Positions 6,281 through 59,603 of a stretch of 64,000 nt of DNA are shown in pieces. The notes beneath the pieces were generated by a model that worked only from the letters and a program-made list of their open reading frames with translations, was not told the DNA's origin and made no database searches. The position numbers were made by a program, and so were the translations under genes. Origin of the DNA: Rhodamnia argentea (taxonomy: Eukaryota > Streptophyta > Magnoliopsida > Myrtales > Myrtaceae); assembly GCF_020921035.1 (NCBI RefSeq), contig NC_063155.1, positions 24,421,294-24,485,293 on the forward strand, written 5' to 3'. Within the stretch, counting starts at the first letter, position 1. Every line of letters begins with the position of its first letter.

Positions 6281-8700
6281 GGCTCTCGAGCTTCGACAGA
6301 GAAACGAAGAAATCGAGCGCGCGGGCGAGAGAGAGAGACGCGTGAGACGATGGTTCTGAAAGATTTCGGAGCAGAAAAGAGCGAGTGGCGGGAGAGGAAG
6401 GCGTTTGGACAGGACTATATACGCGACTGGGGGGGATTGCTTAACCGTGGTCAGGTCAAGTTTACCGTGGTTAATTGAGCAAAAGTAAATGAGGACTGCA
6501 TGAGTCGTGCATGCAACCGATCGAAAAGTAATCAAAATGGAAGCCATCGTAGTTTCTTGGGTTTTGTTGTCTAATTACGAATTTACCACGTAACCGTTGT
6601 GGGATCGTTTCGTGATTATCAAAACCGCCTTTTAACAAATATTTCTAAAATTGAATGTAAATGTTTCAATTGTCTTGCGCATTAATTCTTCGGCCAAAAC
6701 AATTGAGATTCAACGATGGCCCACCTTAATCTATTGTACACAAAAGATATCTTAAGGACAATCAAGGTCGCGCTCTTATCCTTTTTAGAATGTAGTTTAT
6801 ATAGAAGTTGACAATTCAGATCTCATTTAAAGAAAGTCTATATTTAAAGCTTGCATTTCCGTTTTACATTTTACTAAAAGATGAGGCGAAATTTCACCTT
6901 TATGTTCAAAGCCATTGGCTCGAATTTTAACTTTATAAAATCCCAACTTTCCGAAAGATAATTGTCTTAAAGGTTCCTAAATATATTATGCAACCGCCAA
7001 TTCAATTCTAAACCTTTCAATTTCGACTTTCGTTTTGTCCTTTCGAGTAATTTTGGTCAAATTTAATGACGTGGACGTCACTTGTTTTAATTTTTTTCAT
7101 GATTTTTAGCTTTTGTTTTATATTTTTTAAAAAAATTTACGGCTTTTTTCCATGAGGGGCAGGGGGGTCGCTAGCCATGAGCAATGGCCACGAAGTCCTT
7201 GCAGTGCTAGCCATGCTGAACCCTGGCGAATCCGCCAACCCTTTGAGGAAGAAGTACAATAAAAAAACAAAGGAAACTAATAATTACAAAAACAGATCGG
7301 AAAAATTTTAAAGGAATAACAAAAATTGTCCACGCCACGTCGGCGCTGATTGTGCCATGTAGGATGGTCAACGTTCTTATTGTCGATTTCCAACCAAAAT
7401 TGACCCCGAGTGATTGAATTGACGAATTGTCAGAAAGTTTAGGATTAAAATGGTCAAATTAAAATGTTTATAATTGAGTTAACCAATGAAAAATAGATTT
7501 AGGGCTTTTGGGATTATTTTTCCAGTTTTTTTAGCAAAGCTGTTAGGTTACGTATAAAGAGAGATAGAGTGCCTAAAGTTGTGGAAGATGTTGGTGGTTA
7601 CACTAAAAGTGGGTAATTGTCCATCAAAATCGATGACGGCAAACATGTCAAATTGTATTCATAGTCTATTTTTTTTTTTAAGTAAGAATATCCATTGTCT
7701 AGTTATTAACCTACCATCAATTCTGTGTTAGGTAATTGTGGGAAGTCGCAAAAAGTCAGACTAACAGAAGTTTACCATTCGTATGTTAGGCCATTATTGT
7801 ACTTAAAGATTACGTTTGGTAGTTCGCATTTGAGTTCGGATAGGAGAGCAAATCGTCCTATTCGATGTTTTACGGCATCCTTTGGACTGAACTTAATTGG
7901 ATAAAATGTTGGATAAGAAATATGGGATAGGGATAGGATAAATCCAAATCGGATAAAATGTTCAAAAAATAACTTGACAAAATAAGAAGAACAAGCAAAC
8001 CATGTTATATTTTAACGATAGAATGATGGAATGCCGCGTGCAAAATTGCATTGCTAGCTATCATGCAAGGACCACCACCATGACTGCCGATTGTCGTCAC
8101 TGCCGACCACCGCACAATCGTCATCACCATCAATCACGGCCTATTGTGTTCCAACAGCTGAGGGTGAAAAATGGAATAGAGTCGGTCTAGTCGGTGCTTC
8201 ACTGCTCTTGTTGCTGCTGCTATGTGCTTGTTTGTGCTTCGCTTCTTCTTCTTCAATCTAAGTGGGAAGAAAATGACTCTGACGAGGCAACATTTCACTC
8301 CATGTATGATTCTGGCAACTACAAATATTTGGGTGATCATCACTTTGAATACTTGTGAATCAGCAAAACGAGGGGAAATGAGTACTTTCACCAAAAAAAA
8401 AAAAAACCGTGAATAACCCATGCTTGCATAGTCTCTCGAGCTTATTCAACCAATTGGCGACCCGGATCGATCCCGTCGAGCTCTACCTTTCTATTTTTGT
8501 AATGTAAACAGAGTTTGCGACAGTCTCACGGGGGTTGCTTAGACAAGGACAGCAGACTCGAGGCATTGCGGAGAGCGTCGCAGGTGGGGGTGGAGGCCAG
8601 ACGAACTGGACATGGCGCAGCATTTTGAAAGATTTTGGATCCCATCGTACTCTACCCCTGTTCGAATATGGTGGACATGACGTAGCCTTACTTCGTTAAT
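6281..8700. other. Intergenic between ASY1 and the ENY2-like gene
   Basis: No gene recognised. The proximal part (to about 6420) is the ASY1 leader and promoter, with GA-rich tracts. About 6950-7530 resembles a non-autonomous DNA transposon. The segment near 7830-7960 (repeated GGATA-type words) looks like another decayed repeat. Open frames at 8002-8421 on both strands overlap each other and show no domain. Confidence 0.5.
6950..7530. mobile_element. Possible MITE-like element
   Basis: An AT-rich stretch carries a GC-rich core (about 7145-7240, with a CTAGCCATG word repeated) flanked by ACGTGGACGTCA near 7071 and CACGCCACGTCGGCG near 7332. The same architecture occurs in the better-bounded element at 36800-37326. 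It has no coding capacity, and the ends are uncertain because I could not find clean terminal repeats here. Confidence 0.35.
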
Positions 8701-11174: not shown

Positions 11175-12251
11175 TTCATCAGCGAGTCCTGCAGTTTGGT
11201 AATTAATGTACAACTCAAGGATGTTATCGGACATGTGCATGCACATTGTTACCGCACACAGTAGTTCTCTGCTTCAGCATTAAGCCAAGTCCGACTCACC
11301 GAGCAAAACCTTCTGTGGTGGGGAGTTTGGAGGCCCGACGATACGCCACGCAGATCCCAAGCAGCAATTTGGTACGGCACTTGGGTTAGGACATTGAATG
11401 TGAATAGGCACATCGGCATCAGAAGGGTTTGTCGAGGTCTAATATCCGGTTTTGCCCTTGCACTCCCGTCAGGTGTCGCGGTGCAACAATGCTTTTGGAC
11501 CTGTGAACTCTCTTGGACTTCGAATCTGGACATGGAAGCATGCTTTTTAAGGTGCTGATGTTATGCTGTCATCATGGCTGCAAGAGCAAGTTCTGGATGA
11601 ATAGGATATCATTCATCTTGCCTAAAACCTTACATTAAAAGCACATCTTTGTCAAAGAGCAGTTGGTACTCTTAGCAAAGTTTCAACAAGTCAAAAAATT
11701 TGTAGACATAAGTAGCAACCAAGCGGGGTAAACTTTATACGAGACGGACGGAAAAGGTTGATTCGGCCGAGAGAGGAAAGAGAGTGAAGGATAAAAAGAA
11801 GTAAAAGAATGGTATCTAGAGGAGGCAATTTACTGAAGACAAGATTTTAACAATTTAGTCTGAACAATTCAGTGTGAAGCTGTGAAAGTGAATTTTTTTT
11901 TTTTTTTGGTCAATCAAGCTGTGGAAATTAACTAAAGAGACGATGAGTATTTTGGCACGTCAAGTGCATAATTTGACAATAGCAAGTAAGAGAATATTAC
12001 AAAACCTTAATTTCAGTTCAAGTAACATTAATTGAAATCAAATTTGAAAATCTCTATCTTTACTCGGAGGATCGAATTCTTTTTTATTGATTTAAAATTG
12101 TTCCAACTAAATTGAGCGGGGCCCAAAGGAAAAGCCCACTAAAACCGCGAACGAGGGAAACGGAAACCCAATTGATCCCTTCCCGCCACTTTTTAATCCC
12201 TCGCTCATCCCCCCTCCCCCCTCTCTCTTCTTCCACATTTCGAGCTCGACC
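11175..12251. other. Intergenic, ENY2-like 3' region to NF-YC13
   Basis: No gene recognised. An open frame on the minus strand (11249-11533) has no familiar domain. A short poly(T)-GGTC insertion with flanking direct repeats sits at 11877-11926. The last 150 bp before 12252 is the pyrimidine-rich leader of the next gene. Confidence 0.5.
11877..11926 (-). mobile_element. GACC-poly(A) micro-insertion with direct repeats
   Basis: The repeat AAGCTGTGRAA occurs at 11877-11887 and 11916-11926. Between them lies a roughly 28 bp insert which, read on the minus strand, is GATTGACC followed by about 15 A and TTCAC. The layout (target duplication, GACC, poly(A)) matches the copies near 20.8 and 52.5 kb. 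Confidence 0.55.
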
Positions 12252-20784: not shown

Positions 20785-20819
20785 AACCAACGTTTTCGAC
20801 CAAAAAAAAAACCAACGTT
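20785..20819 (+). mobile_element. GACC-poly(A) micro-insertion with 10 bp direct repeats
   Basis: AACCAACGTT occurs exactly at 20785-20794 and 20810-20819. The 15 bp between is TTCGACC followed by A residues. It has the same build as the copies at 52456-52694. Confidence 0.55.
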
Positions 20820-20984
20820 GGGTTTTGGTCTTGAAGCAAAGCCTTTTAGGGTTCCAAAAAAAAAAGAACCCATGAAGAAAACAGGTTGCACGTATGTCAA
20901 GGGCAATCTGCAAGCCCACCAAAGGTCCAAAGGTACTATTGGGCTGCGAAAAGAGGTCCGCGCGGGAGGAGATCCTGGACTACA

Positions 20985-21050: not shown

Positions 21051-21070
21051 GTCTCTTCGGAGACATCCGA

Positions 21071-21102
<32 letters not shown>

Positions 21103-21152
21103 GGCCCCTGCGCAAGGATGACACGCACAAATCGAGAAATGGTCCAAATTTT
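21051..21152 (+). ncRNA. U6: U6 spliceosomal snRNA
   Basis: U6 forms the catalytic core of the spliceosome with U2 and U5. The RNA begins GTCTCTTCGGAGACATCC and contains the invariant ACAGAGA box (GATACAGAGAAGATTAGC) and the AGC triad. It ends in GGTCCAAATTTT followed by the T run (21149-21155) that terminates Pol III. The length of about 102 nt is normal. The 5' stem-loop reads GTCTC/GAGAC around TTCG; the usual plant form, from memory, is GTCCC/GGGAC, so both sides changed and pairing is kept. One further change lies in the 3' half (GCACAAATCG for the usual GCATAAATCG). With an intact USE, TATA box and terminator the gene looks functional. Confidence 0.96.
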
Positions 21153-21744
21153 TTTGCGATTGTGTTGTTTTTTTTTTTCTTGCTTCCATACAATTGTCGC
21201 ATTTCCCTTGTTTTTTCTTGCATCGACAAAGGGGCACATTCCCGTTCCGGTGCCGGTGTCGGTCTTTAGCCCATTACAGGCTGTTATTGTTTGCTTAGAC
21301 AGCTATGAACGAGGCTCATGTTGCAGTATCGGTCCTTGGTCTTCTCCTTGGTTCCGGATACAGCTCGGCTTAAATTGTTGGACTCGTCAGTTATCACGCG
21401 TTGTTTCTCACATCAAAAGTTTCTTACTTCTAAGGCCCAAAAAGAAGGGGTTGTTCTTACAGCACGGGAGAGGTCCATGACCTCGAGATCTGCCAACCTC
21501 GCGTTTGTGTTCCGACGGTCATAAACTTCGACGGTTTATAAAGTAACCGATTTGACAAAGATATGCAGGTCGAACAGGGATTAAAAGAGTACAGGTCGAG
21601 TGGGACTATACATGAACTTGTCGATCAAATTAGACAGCTACGGCCAAGTTTTTTTATTAGCTACAGTCTCTGTTTTCATTGGTCTCTGTGTTGAACGGAT
21701 GAAAGGATTAGTTTTGCGGAAGCATACGGAAATGTTTTACATCT
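21153..21744. other. Intergenic after U6
   Basis: The T-rich U6 terminator is followed by about 590 bp with no recognised gene. Open frames at 21118-21524 overlap each other and show no domain. I see no second snRNA. Confidence 0.55.
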
Positions 21745-24159: not shown

Positions 24160-26806
24160 CTAGCATAGAAGGCCATACGAAGGCATATCTTCAATTCGCA
24201 AGACTTCTTCCATGAGAAGTTCTCTCTCTAGCTGGGCTCGAGTAGACTTCAGAACATCCTGCTTGTTTTGATCAGTATAGCTCAACGAAACTATCTTTCA
24301 ATTTCGAGAAAGTAAGAAAACAGTTGCTCACATTGAACTCCATGTATGTCGCGTTTCTTTCCAGCCATTGTTTGTCCATAATCATGAAAGCCACGCAATA
24401 TAGCAAATCAAATGCCCACTGATCCTCTGTAAACAGATTAAAAAGGAACTAAATGTCAGTTGAGCTCAATTACCAACAGCCAGTCTAGACTACAGAATAA
24501 AAAGGGCCCCCATAGGATCAAGGGAAAGGCACTCCTTAGATAACCTTATACAGCCAGATAATGAAGGACATGACGTATATGTCTAAGCTGTGCATTGTCG
24601 AATAAGAAATGCTACCCACATTAAAGTCCTCAGTAGAAGATACGGACTCCGCAACCACAAATTTTCAGCAATGCACTTGTATTTGTTGATCATGCCAACC
24701 ATAGAATCATATTCCGCATATTTTTGGAAAAAAGATGAATTACTGTTCTATTACCTGACAACATCTGCAGAAACACTCCTCTAATAAATGTCCTGGGTTT
24801 TGCTGCAAATAAATGAGCGGTCCATGTCTTATCAGTGAACCCAGATGCCAAAAAGTTCACAAGTAATGCAACATTGTAGCAGTCAGCTTGGAATTTGGTC
24901 CCAAAAATCTTTTAACAATGCATTACTTGCTTCGAGGGCTGATGGTTAATCACACTCCAAAACTTGCTTCAGATTGAATGAAGAAATCTACAGAATCACT
25001 GGTTTGACCCTTACATGCATCGAGATCAAGCATTTGCATGATCATGAATGTAATATTGACACCAGCAACAGCAAATGGGTACTCCCATGCTGCTCGCTTT
25101 CCTCCTTGCTTTTCCAGCAGATGCTGGAAAGATATCTGCAACGTACAAAATGTAATATAGTAAAGCTTCATTAAATGTAATATACAACCGGCAGGTTAAG
25201 TGTAACGTCCAAGTGTTGGAAAGTTCAGTCCTCAAAAACTAATTCATCATAACCAGGGTATAATTATTTCACACTAGTCTCCGCCACTAAGGAAAAAGAT
25301 ATGCAGCCATTACAGGTAGATAAGATATCCTTGTGCAGATTGAATATGACTTCACAAAGAAGACAGGAAAGAAATCTCACCGAAAATGTCTTTGCAAAGA
25401 AGAGCAGGTTCTCTAAAGAAATGAATCCAGCCCCCCTGATAATCAGAAAAATGGCATTGATTAGTAGGAAACAAGATAAAGAAGATGTTGAAGAACATCA
25501 ATAACAAGATATGGAACAGCATGGACTAGAAACCTGAAATCGGTGGATGGATCCTTCCCTTGCCACCCCATTTTTTTCCATTGATCAGATATTAAGCCTT
25601 GTAGTTCCTCATTGGGATATGTAGCAGACCAGAGAGCTCTCAAAGCATCCTTTTCTTGTGAAAGTAACTAAATTAATAACTTAAAAAGAATGGGAGAGGT
25701 ATTCTCTTAATGAACTTGGCATATATCAAACTTGTACGCTTTCATTTAACAGCGACTTTAGATTTCATTCTGGCAACATTATGTACCTGGTGATCTCGCC
25801 TAGAAGCATCAAAGAATACTTTCATACGACACTTCAATCTTTTAAGCCTTTCCTCCTACCAGTCAACAAGAGATAATAAGTCTAAATGGTTCTACATCAA
25901 ATTCCTTTAAGATAGCATATAATACATACACGAGTTAGAATGAGGGAGGACTCCCAAGGACAAGAACAAATGTAAAGAACCACAGCACTTTCAAGAGAAT
26001 ATTAAGGGCCAGTGAAGTTAAAGCATATACATGACCAACAAGTACAGAGGCAGGTTCCCTCTTTTTCCATGAAGGTGCAAGGAGGCCTACTGATCTAATA
26101 CATGGAGCAAAATGACTTTTTTTTTTCTTTTTATGTTGTGTGACAAGCACATTTATCTTCAAAACTTCCAGAAAATAGGTTAAAAAATAAACAAAGGATG
26201 ATATTCTTCCCAAACATTAGATTTTGAGAATAGGGCTGGTCAAACATAGATCAAAGAACGAGATTTTATCTTGGGAAAGCAGTTGCAGAAGAAAACCGCC
26301 TACAGTATAGTAGTCTTGAGACAAATGACAAAGAAATGGAGGAAATTACAACTACCCTAACCTGCCAGTGAGGGGGAAAATTGCAAATATGCGTAAAGCA
26401 TCAGTATTGGAGTTAACAGAAGAAAACCGCCTTCAGGCTGGTCTCTCTTTAGCAGCAGCTACTTGCCTGTATGGGTGTCAAGTGAAAACAAATGCGTTCG
26501 TATGTCCCCTTTCGCTTAAAGCAAACACATGTGAGGCCTTTCCCAATCCAGGCAGGTGCTCCACAAGTTGCATTATCTACAAAAAAGCTAATCAATCTAA
26601 GCATTCTGATCCCTATATAGGCCGCTCAATATGCAATGAAAGCATTGTGGAACTACTAATTGCACTCATTATGACAAGAAAAACAACTAGTAAGCAGACA
26701 CTCTCAACAGCTCAAAGAAATTCTTTCACTGAAGTTACCACCAGAAATTGGAGGCGGCCCCCAGACCTTGAAAGATGTTCTGATTGTTCCTGCCAACTCT
26801 GCTCAT
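24160..26806 (-). CDS. ELMO/CED-12 domain protein
   Basis: ELMO-domain proteins act on small GTPases in animals (ELMOD types are Arf-family GAPs); the plant members are largely uncharacterised. Coding exons: 26767-26806, 26467-26576, 25787-25855, 25534-25649, 25381-25435, 25015-25135, 24755-24802, 24332-24426, 24160-24258, giving 250 aa, normal for the plant family. Landmarks in order: APAWIGKGLTCVCFKRKG; ALRALWSATYPNEELQGLIS; DQWKKMGWQGKDPSTDFR|GAGFISLENLLFFAKTFS (the ELMO core); KRAAWEYPFAVAGVNITFM; DQWAFDLLYCVAF; and ERELLMEEVLRIEDMPSYGL at the C-terminus. The junction HLTPIQ|EERLKRL needs a GC donor (CAG|GCAAGT at 26467/26466). The start at 26806 (MSRVGRNNQNIFQ) is my choice because the reading frame and splice phase fit. 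The upstream exon near 28.5 kb is probably leader, although a longer N-terminus cannot be excluded. Confidence 0.9.
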
Positions 26807-28800: not shown

Positions 28801-31737
28801 AATTGAATAATATTACGTGTCTTGGACGTGCATGGCGACGGCAATTGTGCGGGGCGAAGTGACGCGATCGTGGGATCTCCGCCGTCCAATGAAATGACAG
28901 AATCTGATGGACAAGCTCATCAGAAATCACAGTGCAAGCCAATCTCTATTCCTTTATGTTCAAATTGCATCAACAGCGCTTTAGAACTAGTTTCGCCCGT
29001 TGAATCGGATCGACTTGAATTAGGGTCAGATAAAAAATTATCCGATCCGTATATACTCATTTTATCCATTTTATTACAACACAAATTTAGTAATTAGAGC
29101 CTAACTCAACTCGTACCCTATTCGAATTGAGGTGAGAGTGCGGAGTGAGTGAGTGAGCGAGCGCGCTAGATCAAGTAAGAGCTAGAGAGAATGAAGAGAA
29201 AGTTTTAAAGATGAGTTGTATCCAAGTAAGTTGTAAACACATTTACGGCCCATTCAACACCAATATTATGTTTACACCCATTTATAATTCGTTTCTTAAA
29301 TATAACTAACTCATTTAATAACTTAGCTTATCATGTATAGGCTAAGAAATAAATTTATAACCCATTTTGATTGATTTAGCTTCACCTCTCATCTTCTCTG
29401 CTAAAGATATTTTAGATATCCTCTAGAGATATATAGCATGTTTTCTATATCTATTTTGAATATTCATATCTCATTTGATTCCTTAAATAGTCATCTAATA
29501 TGGCCTATTTATTTACGGGCTCTCAATATAATCTTTTATGTATATCGAAATATACGAAAACTTTCTATTTTTCTCTTCTGCATTATTTTCAACTAGGTAT
29601 AGATGGCTATCCAAAAATTTCTAATTTCATTTTTCCGTTTTATCGGTTTTCGGCATGCACCCGTGCATCGTTGAAGCAAAATAAATTCATCTGGTCTTTT
29701 GACAATACAAGTCGTGTCGCTCCGTTACCGTTCCGCAAGCTAGCGGGTTTACCTAACCTAATGCCACGCGGCGTGTTGGATTGGGGGAAGATGTTAAATA
29801 TATTTTAGATAGCGTGTTGGATCGGAGGAGGATGATAAAGATATTTTAGATATCTTCTAGAGATATAAATGATATTAGAGTTGTATACTTATTTCAATTA
29901 TGCATATCTCATTTAATTCCTTAGATAGTCATTTAATGTAATCTATAAATAGACTCTCAATGTAAAATCTTTTCTACATATATCGAAATATACGGAAATT
30001 CTCCATTTCTATTTTCTGCATTATTCTCCACTTTCTCCGTCATTATTCTCCTGAATCCTGACTCCCGAGCACCAATTCATCTGAATATCTGTTCGAACAT
30101 CTTGCTTCGCGATTCTCATCCACCCAAGCGGAACTGTCAATAAGCAAACCTGTTTCCACTTGCGTCAATTCGCCTGCCACCGTCGGTTCATCGCTCGAAA
30201 CACGCAACAACTGAACTCGTCGAATTGCAAAATCGGGACTAAAAGCAGAGCGTTTTCCCATGTGCCTGGTCCCGGCAACGACGAACAGAAGGTGGTCCTC
30301 AGGCGGCCCGAGAAAGAGCGTGACGGAGGTGCGAAATCGGTGGTTCCTCGGATTTTTGCTATAAAAAATCTCCAGCGACAAGACAAAGCAAGAGCTTTTG
30401 TAAGCTGAATCCCATCACCGTCCTGTCGTTTATCGTTACCCATCGGACCACCCTCCGCCTTTCAGCATTAGATTTGATTTGACCGCCACATGGCTTTTTA
30501 ATTGCAGAAACTGGCTGACTGAAAGGTACCGATGCTGCGGCTGAATTACATCATATCTCATGCTCCAAAACAAATTAAAAGTGGAGACAAAACAAGCCAG
30601 CAAGAATCGTGACTCTCACCCATCTCACGCTGCATCCAAACACAAAAGGACAGAGCGGTGAGCACTGTGCTTTGACCGGCCACAGGGCTATTCTATTCTA
30701 TTCTTGTAGGGGCTTTAATGAAAAGTACGACAAAATCCCAACAACAAAAAAATTTCGAGTACGATGAGTACGTTGATTGGCGCATCTTCCTCTTTGACTT
30801 GACCCTGGCGGCAATGTGGATCCAGTGGAATACGGGCCCACATCCCAAAATTTGGACATGGATAGTATATTTATGGGGTAGATCGTTCGGAGGTTTTAGA
30901 GTTTGGGCTTGTGTTTTGTGTGCCCTATCAGGTTTGAGTTAACTTCATGGGTCTCCTTGGGTTCCAATTATTTCGCTGATTCAGGAGTGAGACTCCTAAT
31001 CGAAAAAGAAAACAGGGCATATGGCACACCTCTCTTTGTTCCCGTAAAACATCTACTCCGAGTTCAAAGGGTGAATGTGCTGCCCAAGGATTGTGTGCTG
31101 ATGATGAGTCAACGCAAATTTTTCGCAGTTGAGACGATCTCTGATCACCGCATTCGATAGGGTCTCAGGTTATGAAGTACAGAGCCCTAGCAAATTGCGG
31201 TACCAAGACAGGGAAACATTGGCTCTAGAAACATAACCCACACGACTCATGGCTGATGCTGGAGATTACAGATCACTCGAGTTCAATCTGGGAAATCTCG
31301 GGTACAATACCAGAGTCCTTCAGTTGATCACACACAGGTGCAACAACTTGACGTATTTGCAATGAACAAAAGAATGGGCAATTGTTTCTTCTGCAGAATG
31401 ATACAAATCCCAATTACACTTGCACATCCTCTGCAGCTAAAGATGCATAGAGCTAAAAACATAAAAGGCCAATCCCGAGAGACACTGTACATGCATAGAC
31501 TCCACAGTATTTGCTAGACATCAACAAGCAGAAGTTGCTACAAAAATCTCAGTGAAAGACTATGAGATTGGGAAGTAAAGGGAACAAAACAAGATCCAAT
31601 TAACAGATCACTGATCAGTATAAAAGGCCGCTGATTGTGGTTGGCAAAATCTCTGCATCTTGTAGATTCTTGTAAGGGCGCTGCTACAATGATAGAGAAC
31701 GTAGATGTACAGTATCTTAACAGCAAGCTCCTCCCCG
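28801..31737. other. Gene-poor region with LTR-like fossils
   Basis: Two related LTR-like blocks lie at about 29404-29600 and 29814-30040. A minus-strand frame at 30043-30381 (112 aa, starting MSLEIFYSKNPRNHRFRTSV) and overlapping frames to 30443 match no domain I know; the stretch is GC-richer than its flanks and could be a gene fragment. The rest (30450-31737) shows nothing I can name, apart from the 3' UTR of the GT47 gene at its end. Confidence 0.45.
29404..30040 (+). mobile_element. LTR-like fossil pair (Ty1/copia-like or TRIM)
   Basis: Two direct repeats of about 200-225 bp share TTTTAGATATC, TCTAGAGATATA, CATATCTCATTT, TAGTCATYTAAT, TCTCAAT and TATCGAAATATACG in order. The second begins TGTTGGATCGG near 29814 and carries a CTATAAATAGACTCTC promoter-like core. 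A GGTATAGATGGC stretch after the first copy faintly resembles a Met-tRNA primer site. The roughly 210 bp between has no coding capacity. It looks like a broken, old, short LTR element or two solo LTRs; the family is inferred from the style of the LTR only. Confidence 0.45.
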
Positions 31738-34700
31738 TCATCTCCTTTGCCCCCACCAGTCTGGAATTTTTAACCTCCGGTTTCTATGTACAGCAAGTTT
31801 GACCCGGGGAAGTTTGTGCTTGATCTCTCTCCATAGCATGTCCACAGCATCTTCCTTCTGCGGGGGGTAATGGAATTCATAGTGATGGGAAATTGTTCTA
31901 AGCTGCTTCCACATTTCTATCCATCTCTCTTTTGGGAACAGACGCAGTTGAGCAACCATGTAACCCGGTGTAAGTGCCTCCTCAACTGAGAAGAAAATCG
32001 AGAACTGGGAATAGTCAATTTCATCCTCATATGGGAGCTCAATCTGATCACTAACGATGACAGGAACACAGTGGCTGACAATGGCATCAAAAAGCCGGCA
32101 TGATGATGGAGTATCTCCAGCTGGATGCAGACAGAACTTCGACGAACGCATTCCTTGAGTGGACTGGATAAAAACGAGAGAAAAGTTAAAGAATAAGCAT
32201 TGTCCATTATGAGCATCATTGCTGCTAGCAGATGTCAGTGGATCTCCACTGTACAAATAAAGAGCTTTCCGCTGGTCTGAGTACTTTGTAATTGTAGTCA
32301 AAGCATCAATTACAACCAGGCAATTCAGAGCTGCAGCCAAATGCAAGCTAGCACATATTACAACCAGGCAATTCAGAGCTGCAGCCAAATGCAAACTAGC
32401 ACATTGTTATAATTCATATACTCCCACCTTTGGGTCATAGATGACACTCAAAACAGAATCAGACAACATGAATCACCTTAGCTTTCTATGCTTTAAAAAT
32501 TTACATGACAATACAATTAGAAATTATATTCTCAAGGAGACATCTGTAATCCACTAATTGGTAAGCATATCTCATACTAAATTCTTATGTTTGATATGAA
32601 ATAAGGTATACTTCTGACAGGACTTTTCAGACTTCTATACTTCTAGATAAAGTTAAAAACAACTAACCAGGTAACGTGCTACTTTACATTAATTTTCTTT
32701 CTTCCCTGCTGCCAAGCAGCGCCACTCAATGACCAAAACAAGTATCACAAATTAGATTCTTCAATCACGCTTGCATTTACTTATAAGTTCTCCGCAGGTC
32801 TTCCATTTCGAAAGATTGTTCAAACAGGACTTTTAGTCCTGCTAATCTCAACTTCAGAATCTAACACTGAGCAACCATAAGCAAACGTACCAGGAATTTC
32901 TACAACAAAAAAGGCTAAAGAAATTCATTTGTAGCATTTTAAAAGCCTTCTATTGCTATAAACTTTGAAGGCATTGGTGGACACGATTTATATGAAATTC
33001 TACTTCACTTTTACAACAATCAAATCCCTGGGCAGGTATTGAGCTTGCAAGGGTATAAAAGGAATCAACTAAACATAAAAAAGCAAGAGCATACTCTTGG
33101 AACTTTATTATCAAAGAAATAAAGGTAAAAAGTTGCACACTCAATGCAATGCAAACTGGATTGTTACTAGTATTTTTCCCTGAAACTTATTTAGCAAATG
33201 TGCATAATCCTTGACCCCAGACACGAGATTCTTAAAAATGGCTCTAAAGAACCACGAAAATAAAGTGATCCATATGACCGTCATCACAACCAGTTAAAAG
33301 TTTTGCTGTAACTGTATATGAACGTCCAAATCACTCCATATGCTATATATGAGATCTTACTAACAATATAGGCTGAATAATTGAGAAAATGGCAACTCTA
33401 CCTACCATTTTAATGCTTTCAACAGTTGCAATACTGCGCTCGTAATGAACGTCATCATAACCGGCTAATATTTTTGCCAATTTAGCACGAACAATCCCCT
33501 CCTGCATGGTAATAGGCATAGTGATTGAAAAATATGGTGTCAAATACTACTCAGATTTCAATTTTCAAAGATAAATCACACAGCAGGGCCAGGCTGGCTT
33601 ACATCTTTCCTGACTGTCCTCCCACGGAAGAATAGAAGCAGGGGGCGCAACCCGTACGGGTCAACAGTATCATCATCTAGAAATGACTCCACAACATGTA
33701 CATATGGAGCCACCACATCTTTGTTCAAATTTGACATGGTTTTAGAGAAGCGACCAAAATCTGCAACAATAAGAATAGATGCGTTCACCTGTTCCCGAAG
33801 AAATCTGAAAGCATTTGGGTGTGTCATAGGAATTACATGGTCTCTGCCTCCAGATCTCTGCCAATATTTGGATTGCCGCAAGAACTCCATAAGGTCAATC
33901 TGAAATCAGAAGAACCCATATTCAACTGTAACAAGGATACAGCTGTTCACAAAGAAAAAGCACATCAGAAATTACCTTTTGAAGGGATCATTAAGTCCCA
34001 TTTATAGAGGACTTATAGTGTGACGTAAATTAATAAGCTATAAAGGACGATCCCACATGACGGTTTAACAGAGGCTTGAAAAAAAATAACTGATTTGTCT
34101 CACTATGGTAGTAAAGGCTCGATGAAGATGTCTTGAAACCAATCATAATATAATCAAAGGAAACCAACGGACTGGAATTCATCCTCCATGTCAAAGAGAG
34201 TGTCAAAACAATAGGATTGACTCCAAAATCACTCCAGCCTCTAAATAAAACCACCACTAAACACTCCGTTCTAATACCAAAAAGTAACTTGACAACAAAT
34301 TGAATTGTTTAAACTAAACAAGTGAACACTTGAAAAAGGAAAATTCATATGGACCTCAACATCTTGTCAGGATTCAAAAGATTTCCTCGTTGGAACCTGA
34401 AGGGTCCCTATATTTACAGTTCATCCCCGAATCTGACTATCCTATAGGTGATAGCCAGAAGTCACGTGCAAGGAGATAATGTTAATGGGGGCAAAGAAAC
34501 AGAAGTTCCCCGGTTCACTAGATCAGAGCCTGCCATACATATACACTTCAAAAGCTTTCTCAAAAGCTTTCTCAAAGCATCCAACTTTTAACAGGTTAAT
34601 ATCTCATCTTGAAATGCTTTCATGAGAAATTATCTCACAGCAAACATTTCCAAAATAAGGGCCAGTTCTTTCTTTTGTCGAATAAGGGCCAGTTCTTTCT

Positions 34701-35564
34701 TTTGTGGAAAGTGAAAGCAATTGGATATCCCAACTTCACGAATACTAGTTTTAGGTGTTGACAAGTGCTAAAAAAGAAACAGGCAGAGAGCAAGAGGATG
34801 CAATACAACATAAGCACCGTAGTAGATGCCAACACAGTGCGATAAATAAGCACTTGATAAGTTCAAAGAGAGTAACATCGACACAATGTGCCTAAAAAAT
34901 ACTGCTAATCCAAGAGACAGATGACCGCGAGCCATAGTAGACCGACGCTCTCTCCCTCTCCAAAACATATTGTCGGTTCTTAGATTAATTCTTGGGAGCA
35001 GAATATCAACGAACGACAAGAAAGCAGATATGATTTATTTCTGCAGGAAAGATATAAAACCTACTCAATTACCTGCAGCTTGCGATCAATCTCGGTCTCC
35101 GGATCCGTCATGTTATGGCCGTGCGTGTTGAAGCTCAACGAAGAGAAGAACGGCACAAAGAAAACGTCAGCCGATTCCGGATCCAAGACTCTAACCGCCT
35201 CCCTCCCGCCGCTCCCGCCGCCGCCGTCGTAGACGAGCGAGGCCATCATCCAGTACTCCACGCTGTGCTGCTTCTTCAATCCGGTGTTGCGCGGCCACGG
35301 GGGGAAGTTCCCCGCGGTCACCGGCGATTCGTCGGTGCTGTGGCGGTGTAACATGCCCACGTGGAACCTCCGGGGGAGATCGTACATGTAGACCCGGAGG
35401 GGGGGCGAGTCCGCCTTCGCCCGGAGCGAGGCCGCGCCCGGAGGAGATTGCAGCAGAGGGAAGAAATAGGATCGGACGTCGACGGAGCCGATGATGATAG
35501 CGTACGTGATCAGGAGGAGGAGGAAGCCCAGACCGAGAGAGAGACCGATGGATTTGCCATACAT
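31738..35564 (-). CDS. Exostosin-family GT47 glycosyltransferase (ARAD-like)
   Basis: GT47 enzymes are Golgi type II membrane proteins that add sugars to pectin, xyloglucan or xylan. Coding exons 35073-35564, 33603-33899, 33406-33501 and 31738-32163 give 436 aa. The start [11 protein letters not shown] is followed at once by a signal anchor (about residues 6-27, [14 protein letters not shown]). The catalytic region holds [118 protein letters not shown] and a basic end [26 protein letters not shown] and PVIVSD..ELPYED are family hallmarks. It matches my memory of Arabidopsis At1g67410/At1g34270, whose acceptor sugar I cannot state; ARAD1, a relative, is an arabinan-related enzyme. The 3' intron contains a 48 bp tandem duplication, which creates a misleading in-frame extension of the last exon. 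Confidence 0.94.
32309..32404. repeat. 48 bp perfect-period tandem duplication in a GT47 intron
   Basis: Units 32309-32356 and 32357-32404 begin ATTACAACCAGGC and end CTAGCACAT. They differ at one base (GCAAG versus GCAAA), so the duplication is recent. It lies just upstream of the last coding exon. Confidence 0.9.
34654..34705. repeat. 27 bp tandem duplication in a GT47 intron
   Basis: The 25 bp word starting AATAAGGGCCAGTTC occurs identically at 34654-34678 and 34681-34705, separated by CG. It is a small intronic duplication with no evident function. Confidence 0.85.
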
Positions 35565-36799
35565 TTTGCCAAGATCCACTCGTCGCGAACTCGTCGAGAT
35601 GCTATCTCTCTCTCCCTCTGGCTCTGCGTCTCTCTGCAGATTTGGCAGCTAGGTTGGAGAGAGAGAGAGAGAGAGTATATTGGTTGGCTGTCTATTAAGC
35701 AAAGTGTGATTCAAGCAATTTTCTCGTAATTAATTGCGATCGAAGTAAAGCCGAATCTCTGCGAATGATCTGAATTTAGTAATTACACTAATTCCTAAAA
35801 TGAAACCCAAGGTAGCATCAACGAAATTGCCCGTTTACTGTGGTCAATTTCTTGATGCTAATATAAAATTTCACGAGGTGCGATCCATAATTGATTTTGT
35901 GACATTGTATCACAATTCGTACGAGGCACGATCACACGAATCGTATCCACTTTACTAGGGTATATAAAAAAGGATCTCTAAAAAAGATGAAAATAAAGTT
36001 GCTTCCATTCTCTTCACTCTCTCTCTCTCTCTCTCGATATCAATGGATTTGGATGGAAAGCTTAAAACGGATGGTCCATTACCAAGGGAAACATTCGTTT
36101 GATGTCACGAACAAGGAATCCTGCCCATTTTAAGTAACTCGGAGAAGATTCCCTTCCGTTGTTTGGATGACAAAATTCCTTAACCTTATTGGAAAGAACT
36201 TCTCAATGATTCCCAGCGGTGAATCAGGGACAGAGACGGCGGGCGACTAGTGGTGACTACCGGAGGTGGACTTGGGTTTTGATTTTTGTGTCAATAAAAG
36301 GGATAAGTAGCGAAAATCCAATCACGTCAACATTTCCTATTAGCACGTCATAAAAGGTAATGTGTCTCGAGAAAGTATAAGAAAAAGTCGTATCACTATT
36401 TTGTTTGCCAATTTGAAATAAGTTAATAGAATGACTTGATTATATCAATTTGATAACTTTTATGATTTGATTGGATTTTTTTTTAAGATTTTAAGCTCCA
36501 TTTCACTTTTCTGTAAGTTTTATGATTTATGATGCACTAATAACCTCTTATAAACATATGGAGGTTGAATATCGATGCGAACGAATTATATCTAGGTAAT
36601 CCAATTCCACGTATTTTGAGGAATTTTATTCCCCGTGATATCCAAATTTCCACTTTTATTTCTCTCCAAGCACGAAATATGTAAGAACTTTTTATTCAAC
36701 GAATTCACGATCTGTCGAGGTGGACAGAGTTTTCCCTATTATCTCTTGTGATTGATATAAACGGTACATCCATGTAACAACAAGAAATGATTTTTCCTA

Positions 36800-37326: not shown

Positions 37327-39058
37327 TTTTTTTCACGTGGCAAACAAGTCTTCGTATAAAACAAGTAAGCATCGCTATACTAAGTTAATATCCTAAGCAA
37401 ATTTGTCATCGTGATGGCCGACTTATCATACTTAAAAAAATTCATTTTTCATGTGATTGCCGTCCTCCACGGAGGAAAACTGTATTTCAACATAATTAGG
37501 TATGTCGTTTCCCCCACGTGATTAGTAATTTAGTAGCACGAGCCTCAACTGACGAGAAGTCTTTCGATTAATTTTACTATTGCTGAAAAAGGGGAAATTT
37601 TCAAACCAAATTATGAAGAGGGGCTATTTTTTCAAAAAAAAAAAAAAAAAAAGACTTGAAGTATCGACTTAACTTCGGATAAGGGTCCACACCGGTAGGC
37701 CGGTGCGCACGTGCAAATTGCTTGCTTGTTCCGACAACTAGAACATTACAAATTTGTTACCTTCAAGTTATTTACTCAACTGCATTTTCACATACATCGC
37801 TATAATGATTATTTTGTCGTTAGTGGACTATGACTCGTTTTTCGAGTTTAAATCGCATAGCTCTTTCTCGGAGAACTAGCTTTGATCCGTCGCTTACTCA
37901 TATCAAGTCAAAGCAAAAAATTCAGACAATATTGCTCCTGCTCTAGCCTTTAAAATAAGTATACGAGTTGTATGCACAAGTCGATCGGCGAGCTTGATCC
38001 CTTATTTGAGACTAAATTCAGGTCCATTCCAAATTCTCTTTTGAAAAATAGGGTCCGACCATAAAAAAGTCACACATGTATCTCTTCAGATCCTCAAATG
38101 TTTATCGAAGATCTTGAGATTATAATTCAAAATTTTCTAGAGGAATATAAAAAGGTGATCTCCTAAACTTGTTCTTTCGTTTTCTTTTAGCAGTGTCTGG
38201 GAGTGGGGCCGGCACTAGCAACAGCAATACCGTTTTGTTTATTTGCTTATCTTCGGGCGGATTTGCTAGAACTTGGTTCTTATTCCCATCGGGGGAGAAG
38301 TGGGGGGGCCAGAAGTGGCGCGGCGATTAGCCCAAAACCTCTCGAGCCATAAACGTCAATCGACACAACATCTCGAAACCTACGTCCCATCAACTTCATC
38401 TCGCACGAATCGTCCCCACATAAATTTCCACGTTGTAGACGAGGAGACCCATTTCCCACGAGAAGAATTCTGAAATTTTAAACATCCTTTTATTTCGACA
38501 AAAAAACAAAACATATTTAAAAAATAATTGCTCGCATTGCTCAAAATAATTAACTAATAAAAATATTTTTATTGCTAAATATTTTTTATGGACGATCGAA
38601 TAGTGAAAATTTTATATTCGGGAGAAAACTGTTTTAAATCATTATGTGTATATATATATAAGATCTATTAAAGATTTATATTCGGAAATATGTTAGGTTG
38701 CAGTTTTTTTTACTGATTTGGTCCATTTGGGATCGCAACGCATTGTATTCACTCCATGATCACAAAACTTGTTTCTGATAATCACCAGGAGGATGACATG
38801 CCATGCTTGGTATGAATTGCTCAGGAGTATAAACAATCTTCAGTACTCCAAGCTAGGATCAAATCTTCTCATAAGATATTTGAGGATATGATAGTTTCCG
38901 TAATAAAAATAAAGTTTGCATGCTGATGTACAATGTAATAGTCAACTTCATTGAAACGTGGATACATGCAAGTCATTTTGTTGACGTATATCAGACAATG
39001 CAAGGCTCTATCTACAGAATGGTAGGTGCGATTTTCAAGTTTACTCTCAGTAGAATTT

Positions 39059-43500: not shown

Positions 43501-46500
43501 TCTTAATATGCTGCAGAGGTCTAGAAGCTGGTCTCACTTGTGAATTATCTCTTCGGGTGCAGGATGTTTTTCCTGTAATTCCCGGTGATACGGATTACCG
43601 AATATTTTCTCAAGATTATGGCAACATTCCTGGCTTGGATATTATCTTTCTTCTTGGTGGTTATTTTTACCATACCTCATATGACACTGTGGACAGACTA
43701 TTGTATGCCTTAAATCTGCTATTTTGGTACTGATATGTATGGTCTTAGAAATCACATAATTTTGACCTTTTTGTTTTTTCCCTCATAAATCCAAACTTTT
43801 TAAAACAGACCTGGAAGTGTCCAAGCACGTGGAGACAATTTGTTCAGCTTAATGAAGGCCTTCACAACTTCCTCTATGTTGAGAAATGCTCATGAAAGAG
43901 AACGTATTGGATCTACTGGATCGGATGAGCGGGCTGTATTCTTTGATTATTTATCTTGGATTTTGGTACAACTTTTTTAGATATGTCAATGAGTATCTTC
44001 ATAGTTGGTTATATGAATAAGGTTGCTAATATTGTGGATTTTTCAGATATATTATCCTAGAAGGGTGGCTGTGGTGCTCCATTGTGTTCCTATTGGCATC
44101 TTCTTCGTCATGCCTTTCCTTTTGCATTTACTAAACTTTGGCTCTCGTTCTTGGTTTGCAATTCTCTGTGACTTTGTGAAAGGTAAAGAATGATTGCTAC
44201 CCGTTTTCTGCTATAACTCATTTTCATGTTATGCGGTTTCATTGTCTTTGTCATGACTGTTTGCTCAAGTACCTGGTCTACAGCAAGTTTTACCAACATC
44301 TTTTGCTCTCTCCAGGGACTATGCTCCATTCTGCTGGTATCATACTGGGGGTTCTTTTTCCAGTTGTCTTCTCTATACTGAGATTGCTCTTCTCAAGTTT
44401 TGCAATGAATTGGTGAGTTCTCATCATTTGATTTCACATATCATCTCAGCAGATGGCAACCGTTAAAACTTGATAGGTGTAGCCTGCTGCTTTTCCTTTT
44501 TGCTTTCTGGAGAGAGAAAGTAGGTGGGGTGCGGGTTGGTGAGGGGATACTATGGCATGTGTTCATGTTAACATAGGCAATTGCAGGCTATGCATGATGT
44601 GCTGTAGCCAAATGCAGGTTTGCTACTCCATATTTGGCCTTCATAATGTTCATCCCCAGCTCTGTCGTTGGTCTTTTGGTTCCAAGAATTGTTTGGAACA
44701 ACTTTCCTCTCTCTCAAGAGATCTCAAATCTTAAATTATCAAAGGAGGTATGATCCACTCTGAATAATTATTGTCAAAGCTCTGTTTCTTTTTATTTAAT
44801 CTGTGTGCAATTCTTTCAAACCTTGAGAATGATTACTTCAGCTGGACATGCAAAACAGGTAAATAGTAATTGAATGTATGCGACTGAGGTCTGCCTGCTT
44901 CATTATACTTTATAATGCCGTGATATGAAGAGTCGTCATGATAATGCAAGCAAGTTCTTTTGGACTCTTCAGTGACACTACTGAGTACATGACTGAAATA
45001 TTCATGCAGGTGCTCTTTGATGAAGCAAGGTTTTGGGGAGCATTTGGTTTCTATTCTTTAGTAACGTTGGTAAGTCACACGATTCAAAATTTATGACTTC
45101 CTCTTGTTGAAAGGTGTCAATGAGCTAAATGTGAATTTGGAATATGTTCACTTATTCTACTGTTGAACTTGATCTGACCAAAAAAAAACTTGCTAAAGCA
45201 ACTTTGGTTACTGCAGGCCTACCTTTTAGCTGGGCTGAGTGGTGGATTCGTGACTTTTATGTTGTCCACTGCAATGCTTCTTTCTTGGATATCCTTCAGC
45301 TTAGCAATTCGGTCAAGCAGTCGACATTCACCATGGTAGTGATTGAAAAAGTTCTACTATGGCATGCTTCTATAAATTTTTTCATGGAAAGCACTTTGAA
45401 TGTTATAGGCTATGGCTAGTTGCTAAGCATATTCGATGCTTGCCCTTTGTGAGTTATCCTCCAAGGGACTCCTAAACTTCTTCAAGGAAAAGAACTACTC
45501 TTGCTTGGAACTCATGATGAGGTTTCAGTAAGCTTTCAAGAAAACCTAGAAATGGTGTTTTCCTTCGGCACTAATTGCTGAGTACTCTCGTAAAAATGGT
45601 GTCAGCTTTGATGGTTGATAATTGACGGCTTTGTACAACTTTAGTGATGATTTGGAACCTTTGCGGTTTCCGAAGGAGTGAAAGGGAACTTCACTGTTAA
45701 TTTTCTCTCAGGATTTTCAACAAAAATTGAGTATTGGCGGTAAGATATGATGGCTACTCTACTGTTTCATCTAGAGAAGTTTGATGATTGTTACATGCCA
45801 TGAATAGATCGGCTGTCCCTTCTGAAAATAGCTATTTATCACGATTCTTCTCCGGCAACTTGTTACTTTTTTATATTCCTCCTGATATTTCATTTTTCGT
45901 AAGTATGATAAGGAAGTACAATCTGATTGGAGTGACTTCTTTCAGGTCGACTGTTGCTTTCGTGATACCTCTAATTCCGTGCCTTACATACTCTGTCTAT
46001 TTTGGCGGGTTTCTTATCCAGTTTTTAATTGAGAAGATGGGTATGATGGGCTCTGTTCCACCTCCTTATGGCAAGTTTTCTGGACCTGTATCTTTTCCGA
46101 TGACCTTCATTGACATATGCAATGTAAGGTGTTCAGTAATTGGCATTCTAGGATTACGATGGTAGTAATGCGCATCATACTTGGCAGCAACTGATGACGT
46201 GTCACCTTGTCTTGTATCTTAAGTGCATGCAACTGATATGCCAGAGAGAGACCCAGTTTGGATTAATATCAACATCTCTTTCAACTGTTCTTCCTCTTTT
46301 AAGTGCAGCAACTACGCTTTTGTGATTATCGTCTCAGTTGTCTATACTGTCTGTTCCGTGTGCTTAGTTCTAGCCAAATTGTAAGAGCTTTCTTTTCATA
46401 AAGGTATCAAAGATGATATAAAGTGAAGTGAGATTCTCTTGATGGCAATATACTACATCATAACTGCAAGTTTGGCTTCGGTTCCAGTCCCATTCTTCAG

Positions 46501-49962: not shown

Positions 49963-52232
<2,270 letters not shown>

Positions 52233-52455
52233 AGTTAACACCAAATGAACCAGGACACACCCAACAGAGACTCCCGTTCTCTCAGGCCTTCTTTTTGGAG
52301 AGAGTCGTTTCAGTTTTCCCCATAGAATGTACTCTGGATTTTTGGAACAAATGTGATTTTTCCGTCAGCTGTTATGTCCGACTTTATTTGCAATATTGAG
52401 GATAGCGTACTATATTTTAATTTCCTCCATCTTTATAACTCTACACTAGACTTAA

Positions 52456-52497
52456 AGTACCGTGTTCTTTTGACCCAAAAAAACAGTACCGTGTTCT
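52456..52497 (+). mobile_element. GACC-poly(A) micro-insertion, 13 bp direct repeats
   Basis: AGTACCGTGTTCT occurs exactly at 52456-52468 and 52485-52497. The 16 bp between is TTTGACCCAAAAAAAC. A long exact duplication around such a small A-rich insert fits target-site duplication by reverse-transcription-type insertion. Confidence 0.7.
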
Positions 52498-52541
52498 AAG
52501 TTGTAATTGAAAAAAATTCAACTTTTTTAGCATTATTTGAT

Positions 52542-52595
52542 GTGGAATTATGCTTCTGACCAAAAAAAAAAAAAAAGCAAAAGTGGAATTATGCT
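52542..52595 (+). mobile_element. GACC-poly(A) micro-insertion, 13 bp direct repeats
   Basis: GTGGAATTATGCT occurs exactly at 52542-52554 and 52583-52595. The 28 bp between is TCTGACC, a run of 15 A, then GCAAAA. Confidence 0.7.
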
Positions 52596-52642
52596 GGATA
52601 TGCTAATTTGATTAGCCCTCTCTCAGTAGGATCCACGGAATA

Positions 52643-52694
52643 ACCTATTAGATTGATTGGACCAAAAAAAAAAAAAAAAAACCTATTAGATTGA
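52643..52694 (+). mobile_element. GACC-poly(A) micro-insertion, 14 bp direct repeats
   Basis: ACCTATTAGATTGA occurs exactly at 52643-52656 and 52681-52694. The 24 bp between is TTGGACC followed only by A residues. Confidence 0.7.
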
Positions 52695-53640
52695 CGACGA
52701 CAATAGATAACGATCATCTATTCCCACGATTCCGAACAATGCCGTGTTTAGATTCGGTCTTCTGCGTAGGTAGCTGTAGGGCGAACAGAGTATTTCTATC
52801 CTCGTGGAGAACGTAACCTCCAACATCTATGAATTATTTTTCCCTATAATGAATTATGAGATGGACTTCTTAAATAGTGTTGAGCGCGACGTTTAGAAAA
52901 GTTAATGCAGTCAGTATGCTACGTTTTTTTCTCTTTCGCCCAGTTTTTAAGTTTTGTTTTGAGTTACTATACAGTCACAGCTCATTTTCTATATTTTCCA
53001 TTGATTTGACACAATAAAATGCATTTAAAATTTTTGTGCCACCTTTGGTTCAAGTAATCCTTGCGCAATTATATTACCAAGGATATCTAGCTTTGTTGCA
53101 ATTCTTTGGTGATTGGCAATACAATATCCATCATTTGGCAAATCATGTTCTTACATAATAGTCACATTTGCCAAGTTAAATTTGACTTGATAAAATTTTT
53201 CTCCGAGTTTTGGTTTTTAACTATTTATAAATATAATGAATTACCCATTTTCTTCCTCTGCCCCTCATTAAGAAATTGAATTACCCATTCTCTTCCTTTG
53301 CCCCTAATTAAGAAATTGAATAAGGCAAATATTGCAATTTTTAATAGCACAAAATTGAGTATATTTAATGCATGAAAAGATAAAAAGAGACATTAAACAT
53401 CGCAAAATTTTCCTTATTCAATTTCTTAATCAGGGGCATTAAAAATGTTGCAATTGTTTTTCCTTGTCATGCATTAAAACACTCAATTTTGTCACGAATT
53501 ACCCATTTTCTTCCTTTTTCGATGTAGTCAAGATACTCGATTTAGTTTTATTTTAATTTTAATTTTAATTTTTTTTGCTTTACCACTTTCTTCCGCTCAG
53601 TAGACATATTGACTTCTGCGAGTCACGCTAAAACAGAGGC

Positions 53641-57660: not shown

Positions 57661-59603
57661 ATGTGTTCCTCCACTTTGGTCCGGCCAAGGAAAATGGCCC
57701 TTCCTTCAAGAACGGGCCCCGACTCATCTTCCAAGCTTCTCGATGAATTCGACAGCCCGATTATACCCGGTTTGCCTGATGATGTGGCGAAAACGTGTCT
57801 TGCACTCGTTCCCCGTCGCGAGTTCCCATCTATGGGCTTGGTTTGCAAGAGGTGGAGGTCATTTCTCGGGAGCAAGGAATTCCTGCTCGAGCGAAAGCTA
57901 GGAGGTACTCTTGAAGAATGGGTTTTTATCCTAACCACAGGTGCCGGAAAGAAGGAAAGCCATTGGGAGGCCACCGATGGCTTAGGAAACAAGCAATGGC
58001 GTCTCCCCCCGATGCCCGGTCCGTTGAAGTCCGGTTTCGGGGTGGCAGTTGTCGATGGAAAGCTTTTAATCGTTGGCGGCTATGCAGTGACAGGTGGATC
58101 CGGCGCTGTCTCTGCGGAAGTTTACCAATATGACTCTTGTTTGAACAGGTACACTATTAAGCTTCACGAATTTCTCCAAATTTCTGATGAAGTTGTTCAT
58201 TGCACGACGCCTTCCAAACAATAAGAAGAGATCATTTTAGTTTGTGATGATCAAATTCTCTTAACTCCACATCTAATTTGATTGGCAATCGCGGATTCTT
58301 GCTTCAAGTCCTCATAGGGCTGTCGTATATTTGCATAGTGCTTTCTCTATTTCAAACAAGTTAGGTCTCTGCATGAGAAATAGGCAAATAGCTGCAGCAC
58401 ATAGTTGACTCCCTCATTGGATTTTTCAATCATTTCCCTTGAAAAATCTCTGGACGGTTGCGTTGTTGAAAAATCTCTCTGCATGCCTAAATAAAATCAA
58501 ATGGAAAAGATAGAAATCTATTTTTTTTCCTTATACTTTAATTACTTTTCTAATCAAGTCCCTCTACTTCCGATTAATCCAGCTAAGATGACCTTTGAAG
58601 ACACCGGAGAGTGATATAGATGAAAATATTGCCTAAGTGGATATCCACCGCGGGTCGGTCGTACATAGAAAATAGACTATCATTTTGTCAATTTGTCTTC
58701 TATGCTCCCACTGATTAAATATTCGTGGTAGGTATCACGTAGGCAATTTAATTCATATCACACTCTGGTGTTCTTTGGTCATATTAAGCTGGATTTGATA
58801 GGATTTTTGCGCAGGAAATGATTGATTAGATATTGAAAGTATGTGACTCGATTAGAAAAGCAATAAAAGTATTGGAGGTAGAAATTTTTCCAGCTGAGCA
58901 GGTGAACTGAAAATCTCCTGTAAGGATCTACTTAGCTCGGCTTGCCTAACGGAAATGAGTTACTTGTCTATGCAGTTGGAGCAAATTAAGGAATATGAAC
59001 GAGGCTCGTTGCAGCTTCGCTTGCGCCGAAGTAAATGGAATGGTCTATGCCGTCGGAGGGTACGGAGCCGACGGCAACATCATCGGTAGCGCCGAGGCAT
59101 ACGACCCCAACACGGGCAAGTGGACTCTGATAGAGAGCCTCAGGCTCCCGAGGTGGGGATGCTTTGCCTGCGGTTTCGAGGGCAAGCTCTACGTGATGGG
59201 AGGGCGGTCGAGCTTCACTATCGGGAGCGCGAGATCGGTCTGCATCTATGACCCTGAGAAGCGGGCGTGGTGCGAGCTGAAGCACGGGTGCGTCATGGTG
59301 ACCACCCACGCCATGCTCGGGACGAGGCTCTTCTGTATGGAGTGGACAACACAGAAAAAGCTGTCTGTTTTCGACCTGGGAAAGAACTCGTGGGACACGG
59401 TATCGCTCCCGCCTCACCGGAGCTCGGAAGCCGGGTTTCGGCTCGGGACTTTGGACGGGAGGCTCTTGCTGTTCGCGGCTATGGAAGTGGCAGGTTATCA
59501 CACCTTGTCCTATGACCCGAATGCGGCGCCCGGTTCGGAATGGCAAGCTTCGAAGATCAATCTATCCGGGTCATGCTTGTATAGTGTAACAATCAAGGCA
59601 TGA
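57661..59603 (+). CDS. F-box/kelch-repeat protein (At1g67480-like)
   Basis: F-box/kelch proteins are substrate receptors of SCF ubiquitin ligases: the F-box binds ASK/SKP1 and the kelch propeller binds the target. Two coding exons, 57661-58148 and 58976-59603, give 371 aa. The F-box is about residues 33-75 (PIIPGLPDDVAKTCLALVPR, SMGLVCKRWRSFLGSKEF). Kelch blades follow: WRLPPMPGPLKSGFGVAVVD with KLLIVGGYA; W-S-KLRNMNEARCSFACAEVNG with VYAVGGYGADG; AEAYDPNTGKWTLIESLRLP with RWGCFACGFEGKLYVMGGRS; then FDLGKNSWDTVSLPPH; ending SGSCLYSVTIKA. Length and order match Arabidopsis At1g67480. The splice AACAG|GTACAC to GCAG|TTGGAGC restores C-L-N-S-W-S-K-L. The start is uncertain: the frame is open upstream to the acceptor at 57608, so the ATG at 57661 is the first codon in the spliced frame that I can support. 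The second exon is clearly GC-richer than the first. Confidence 0.94.

What the first reader, a model, noticed from the sequence alone, without database searches (positions are those of the whole stretch)
52456..52694. Cluster of three GACC-poly(A) micro-insertions, each with 13-14 bp target duplications
Three insertions within 240 bp each consist of a few bases, then GACC (or GACCC), then A residues, and each sits between exact 13-14 bp direct repeats (AGTACCGTGTTCT, GTGGAATTATGCT, ACCTATTAGATTGA). Three such pairs with a shared core are hard to explain by slippage. They look like target-primed reverse transcription in which only the last few bases and poly(A) of one RNA family were copied, that is, extremely 5'-truncated SINE or LINE inserts. 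Similar objects occur at 11877-11926, 20785-20819 and possibly 45166-45192. If general, this is a mini-retroposon class seeding poly(A) tracts across the genome.
Basis: partly seen in the sequence, partly recalled or inferred. Interest (0 to 1): 0.78.

Follow-up and report, generated by a model that had tools for sequence, protein, structure and literature searches.

The report
Tiny GACC-poly(A) insertions with target duplications
A stretch of plant DNA holds several very short insertions, each a few bases plus GACC plus a run of A between copies of the target site, which look like copies of just the tail end of a jumping gene's RNA; whether they are a genome-wide class could not be tested.

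Summary
Three inserts at 52456-52694, and a fourth at 20785-20819, each read target repeat / 3 nt / GACC(C) / A-rich tail / exact repeat of 10-15 bp. Of 127 A>=6 runs, 4 of the 6 preceded by GACC(C) have flanking exact repeats >=9 bp with insert <=40 nt, against 0 of the 121 others; 0 of 297 other GACC sites tested had a spanning repeat >=10 bp. Two further sites (11893-11907 minus; 45180-45188) fit weakly. The window is plant nuclear DNA; the cluster starts 224 bp past the stop of what I read as RPL17. The anatomy fits target-primed reverse transcription. Best guess: copying of a plant L1-type LINE or SINE RNA that aborts at a hairpin just upstream of GACC-poly(A), by analogy with some grass L1 and SINE 3' ends (PMC3747384). 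No parent was found in the window and the plant's genome is not held, so the genome-wide claim is untested.

The parts
52456..52468 (+). left target repeat of insert 1
   Evidence: exact 13-bp pair
52469..52484 (+). insert 1: TTT-GACCC-A7-C
52485..52497 (+). right target repeat of insert 1
   Evidence: exact 13-bp pair
52542..52554 (+). left target repeat of insert 2
   Evidence: exact 13-bp pair
52555..52582 (+). insert 2: TCT-GACC-A15-GCAAAA
52583..52595 (+). right target repeat of insert 2
   Evidence: exact 13-bp pair
52642..52656 (+). left target repeat of insert 3
   Evidence: exact 15-bp pair (the leading AA may instead belong to the tail in the right copy)
52657..52679 (+). insert 3: TTG-GACC-A16
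52680..52694 (+). right target repeat of insert 3
   Evidence: exact 15-bp pair
20785..20794 (+). left target repeat of insert 4
   Evidence: exact 10-bp pair
20795..20809 (+). insert 4: TTC-GACC-A8
20810..20819 (+). right target repeat of insert 4
   Evidence: exact 10-bp pair
11877..11926 (-). probable older insert: GATT-GACC-A15 with an imperfect duplication
   Evidence: score 8.5, reached by 2.7% of random positions
45166..45192 (+). possible insert: GACC-A9 with a 6-bp repeat
   Evidence: score 6, reached by 31% of random positions

Best explanation
These are aborted or minimal target-primed reverse transcription events. An L1-type plant LINE endonuclease nicks the bottom strand; the reverse transcriptase primes on the poly(A) tail of a LINE or SINE RNA, copies the tail, the short single-stranded flank GACC and about three more bases, and stops at the base of a stable 3'-terminal hairpin. 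The top strand is cut 10-15 bp away, the stub is joined, and the gap is filled, giving the target duplication. Shown: anatomy, duplications, shared core, uniform length. Inferred: the enzyme, the RNA, the hairpin stop. The 3 variable bases would be stem bases of different source copies or untemplated additions.
For: Exact repeats of 10, 13, 13 and 15 bp around A-rich tails; duplications of full-length human L1 peak at 14-16 bp (PMC2912911, passages). Shared GACC core: 4 of 6 GACC(C)-A runs are repeat-flanked against 0 of 121 others. Exactly 3 nt before GACC in 4 of 4 strict inserts, which suggests a fixed stop. Almost all flowering-plant L1-clade LINEs end in poly(A), and one grass L1 group with its SINEs ends in a putative hairpin with a variable stem and a strongly conserved 4-nt flank, CGAG (PMC3747384, passages and section 4.3); a variable triplet, then conserved GACC, then poly(A) resembles this. 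[quoted passage not shown] the cluster lies just past a gene.
Against: No parent LINE or SINE was found in the window: a crude motif scan for reverse transcriptase in six frames gave 4 short matches that I judge unrelated by context, and none of 4 B-box-like sites had an A box or an A run after it. No convincing longer copy was found, although read-through of a hairpin should give some. In human L1, 5'-truncated copies have short duplications (<=9 bp) more often than full-length ones (PMC2912911); these extreme stubs have long ones. The nick contexts (TTAA|AG, TGAT|GT, GAAT|AA, TGTC|AA) do not clearly show the L1 TT|AAAA preference (recalled), with n = 4. The published conserved flank is CGAG, not GACC, and is from grasses. 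Insert 1 has GACCC and a C in the tail, insert 2 an interrupted tail. 2 of 6 GACC-A runs lack a clear duplication.
Confidence: 0.45

Rival explanations
1. Ordinary random 5' truncation: these are simply the shortest copies of a LINE or SINE family ending in GACC-A(n), and longer copies lie elsewhere in the genome.
For: Poly(A), duplications and a shared 3' end are what truncated LINE copies share. An A7 run at 38500-38506 preceded by TTTCGAC, close to the core, has an 11-bp repeat 3.5 kb upstream and could be read as a long copy.
Against: 4 of 4 strict inserts stop 3 nt before GACC. The 38500 candidate would enclose an exostosin exon at 35064-35648, so it is probably chance. If stops were uniform over even a 150-nt element, four stops within 8 nt would have a chance near 1e-5 (my arithmetic).
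Confidence: 0.2
2. The template is itself a minimal RNA (a processed or cleaved 3' fragment starting at or near GACC), so the inserts are full-length copies and the 3 leading bases are untemplated additions by the reverse transcriptase.
For: Constant core with a sharp start at G and a variable 3-nt prefix.
Against: No such RNA is known to me; no Rfam match up to E = 1 in 52200-52900, though the inserts are too short for this to mean much. The prefix begins with T in 4 of 4, so it may be templated.
Confidence: 0.15
3. Break repair with filler: paired nicks are repaired with duplication of the overhang and capture of filler, with no retroposon involved.
For: The window has short-spaced repeats with non-A fillers, e.g. 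58439-58478, 25148-25184, 30019-30051, 1994-2023. Small tandem duplications in humans and plants are ascribed to error-prone repair of breaks from nearby nicks in opposing strands (PMC8355091, passages).
Against: It does not explain the same GACC-A(n) filler in all four strict A-run cases, with the A tail always on the same side of the core.
Confidence: 0.12
4. Sequencing or assembly artefact, or coincidence.
For: Three inserts lie within 240 bp; three of six random sites would fall this close in 0.06% of trials (post hoc).
Against: Four unrelated target sequences, two places 32 kb apart, variable tail lengths; GACC-A(n) is part of no adapter that I recall.
Confidence: 0.08

Closest known systems
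5'-truncated L1-clade LINE copies of flowering plants
   Same: poly(A) 3' end, target duplications of 10-15 bp, a shared 3' terminal sequence
   Different: only about 7 bases of body, uniform length, no convincing longer relatives found in the window
Poly(A)-ended plant SINEs, and ZmSINE2/ZmSINE3 with LINE1-1_ZM (hairpin plus conserved flank at the 3' end; PMC3747384, PMC2774510, passages)
   Same: variable bases then a conserved 4-nt flank then the tail (ZmSINE3 ends in poly(A), ZmSINE2 in poly(T)); gene association
   Different: no promoter or body; flank GACC rather than CGAG; no hairpin present in the inserts
tRNA tailless retrocopies of primates (named in PMC2912911, passages; their properties otherwise recalled)
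   Same: short retrocopies with target duplications
   Different: the inserts here have A tails and no recognisable RNA gene body; a match of GACCA to a tRNA CCA end was considered and rejected from recall
Small tandem duplications with filler from break repair
   Same: direct repeats around a short insert
   Different: shared filler with an A tail

Membership tests
Non-LTR retroposon insertion by target-primed reverse transcription | target-site duplication, variable in length, unrelated in sequence | tested here: met
   10, 13, 13, 15 bp exact in 4 strict inserts; not demonstrated at 2 weaker sites
Non-LTR retroposon insertion by target-primed reverse transcription | 3' poly(A) or simple repeat tail next to the duplication | tested here: met
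   A-rich tails in 4 of 4; a C near the end in insert 1, GC within the tail of insert 2
Non-LTR retroposon insertion by target-primed reverse transcription | endonuclease nick preference (TT|AAAA type, recalled) | tested here: inconclusive
   four contexts, weakly T before and A after
5'-truncated LINE family | copies of variable length sharing the 3' end | tested here: not met
   3 nt before GACC in 4 of 4; no convincing longer copy in 64 kb; the rest of the genome was not seen
5'-truncated LINE family | parent element with reverse transcriptase and endonuclease | tested here: inconclusive
   motif scan of the window gave 4 short matches judged unrelated; Pfam was run on 9 of 165 ORFs of at least 75 aa, none a reverse transcriptase; genome not held
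tRNA-derived SINE | A and B boxes upstream of the tail | tested here: not met
   4 B-box-like sites in the window, none with an A box upstream or an A>=6 run within 400 nt
Grass-type L1/SINE 3' end (hairpin plus conserved flank) | hairpin immediately before the conserved flank | not testable with these tools
   the inserts end before any hairpin; no parent available

The most novel reading that the evidence does not exclude
A distinct class of mini-retroposon: reverse transcription that always stops a fixed few bases past the poly(A), leaving NNN-GACC-A(n) stubs with target duplications, perhaps about one per 11-16 kb if this window is typical. It would seed poly(A) tracts across the genome, near genes, while remaining invisible to repeat annotation.
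Probability: 0.3. Interest if true: 0.75.

Novelty: new variant of a known kind. Interest (0 to 1): 0.5.

Why it matters
If general, it would show that target-primed reverse transcription often aborts at a fixed point set by the RNA's 3' structure. That would give a natural record of the first step of LINE integration in plants, and a source of poly(A) microsatellites and small gene-flanking insertions that repeat annotation would miss because of their size. The claim is directly testable in any plant genome.

Tried and rejected
Slippage: rejected, since the duplicated sequences are complex and unrelated between the four loci. tRNA CCA ends with poly(A) (GA-CCA): considered from recall only; the G before the discriminator base and the GACCC variant do not fit ordinary tRNAs. 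U6: the gene at 21051-21153 ends in GGTCC-AAA-T(n), which holds the reverse complement of part of the motif but with the run on the wrong side; rejected by inspection. RPL17's own transcript as template: no GACC or GGTC lies between its stop and insert 1. Long retroposons ending at an A>=7 run: two 11-bp pairs with 3.5- and 6.3-kb inserts, judged chance, although the first (38500-38506) has TTTCGAC before its A run.

Relatives elsewhere: no plant genome could be searched. A 50-base U6 pattern in genome contigs gave one record, a bacterial MAG (L001), not examined; a 45-base one in viral contigs gave none.

Literature, from listings unless a paper is named as read: the string GACCAAAAAAAA gave 5 papers, two on rodent BC1 RNA and none on plant retroposons by title, none opened; 'GACC' with SINE and duplication terms gave 1, on primate TRIM genes; searches gave none; one search gave 11, none on such stubs by title or abstract start; some searches gave 95, 304 and 146 papers, of which 25, 20 and 12 were listed; one search gave the review used here. 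Absence from this open-access library and these terms is not absence from print.

Full report
What the window is. Pfam families were found in 8 of 9 ORFs tested, of 165 ORFs of at least 75 aa: F-box, kelch, exostosin GT47 (two ORFs), an NF-Y-type histone fold, ribosomal L22/L17e, SPC12 and DUF642. There are a U6 snRNA and two matches to snoR74. That it is a flowering plant, and that the L22/L17e gene is RPL17 with its last exon ending in the stop codon at 52230-52232, is my reading of the translations, from recalled plant sequences. No genome is held for it. The three-insert cluster begins 224 bp after that stop, with its A tails in the gene's sense.

Observation. Searches confirm three inserts in the cluster and a fourth at 20785-20819. 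All four have exact repeats (10, 13, 13, 15 bp), exactly three bases (TTC, TTT, TCT, TTG), GACC or GACCC, and an A-rich tail. An A14 run preceded by TTTCACC at 8393 has no duplication.

Controls. Of 127 A>=6 runs on both strands, 6 are preceded by GACC(C). With exact repeats >=9 bp and insert <=40 nt, 4 of those 6 and 0 of the other 121 are flanked. With a looser limit, three other runs on the minus strand show 9-10 bp repeats around 50-65 nt. Allowing gaps and mismatches, the non-GACC run at 37434-37440 scores above insert 4, so approximate repeats alone do not mark the class. GACC sites without an A run: 0 of 297 tested had a repeat >=10 bp across them. In 200 third-order Markov simulations, flanked A runs averaged 0.33 (maximum 3), none with GACC. 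These tests are post hoc, because the motif was noticed at the same loci.

Not slippage, probably not ordinary truncation. All exact direct-repeat pairs of at least 10 bp within 400 bp, after a composition filter, were listed: 73, against a mean of 29.5 in 60 second-order Markov simulations; the 73 include tandem arrays. Several have short non-A fillers, so break-repair duplications may exist here too; the fillers of the four examples that I name in the rivals differ from each other. Those of the A-run inserts share GACC-A(n). The uniform 3-nt prefix speaks against random truncation of a long RNA. So does the lack of a convincing longer copy, with the reservation that the A7 run at 38500-38506 follows TTTCGAC and has an 11-bp repeat at 34961; that interval would enclose an exostosin exon, so I take it as chance.

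Mechanism. The parts match target-primed reverse transcription. A uniform stop is best explained by an obstacle in the RNA just upstream. I infer that this plant has, or had, a LINE or SINE ending hairpin-GACC-poly(A). The window shows no parent: no A/B-box pair, and only 4 short motif matches to reverse transcriptase that look unrelated. The alternative that the template is a very short RNA, with the three bases added without template, cannot be excluded.

Age and place. The four exact duplications (51 bp in all) suggest young inserts, but the search selects for exactness. Three of six sites within 210 bp is unlikely for independent sites (0.06%, post hoc); a preference for gene flanks is plausible, since maize SINEs favour genes (PMC2774510, passages).

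Verdict. The inserts are real in this sequence and share a core; their identity as retroposon stubs is likely; a genome-wide class is a fair but untested extrapolation from 64 kb.

Noticed in passing
58439-58478: 13-bp direct repeat around a 14-bp non-A filler (GGACGGTTGCGTTG), possibly a break-repair duplication; similar at 25148-25184, 30019-30051 and 1994-2023.
   Followed up: partly
38486-38517: A7 run preceded by TTTCGAC, close to the insert core, followed by an 11-bp sequence also present at 34961-34971; probably chance.
   Followed up: partly
37400-37475: A7 run without GACC between imperfect repeats (CATCGTGATGGCCG and CATGTGATTGCCG), gapped score 11.5, above insert 4.
   Followed up: no
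50692-50818 and 51212-51340: Two snoR74 H/ACA snoRNA matches on the + strand upstream of the L22/L17e exon at 51485, possibly in introns of that gene.
   Followed up: no
20798-20830: Shortly after the right repeat of insert 4 comes TTTTGGTC (20823-20830), the reverse complement of GACCAAAA.
   Followed up: no
8386-8406: TTTCACC followed by A14, one base from TTTGACC, without a visible duplication; possibly an old copy.
   Followed up: partly
20849-20871: GGGTTCC-A10-GAACCC, a short inverted repeat around an A run, about 30 bp from insert 4.
   Followed up: no
32309-32404: 48-bp unit, two copies in tandem (97% matches), within the minus-strand ORF 31741-32406 that carries an exostosin domain.
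   Followed up: no
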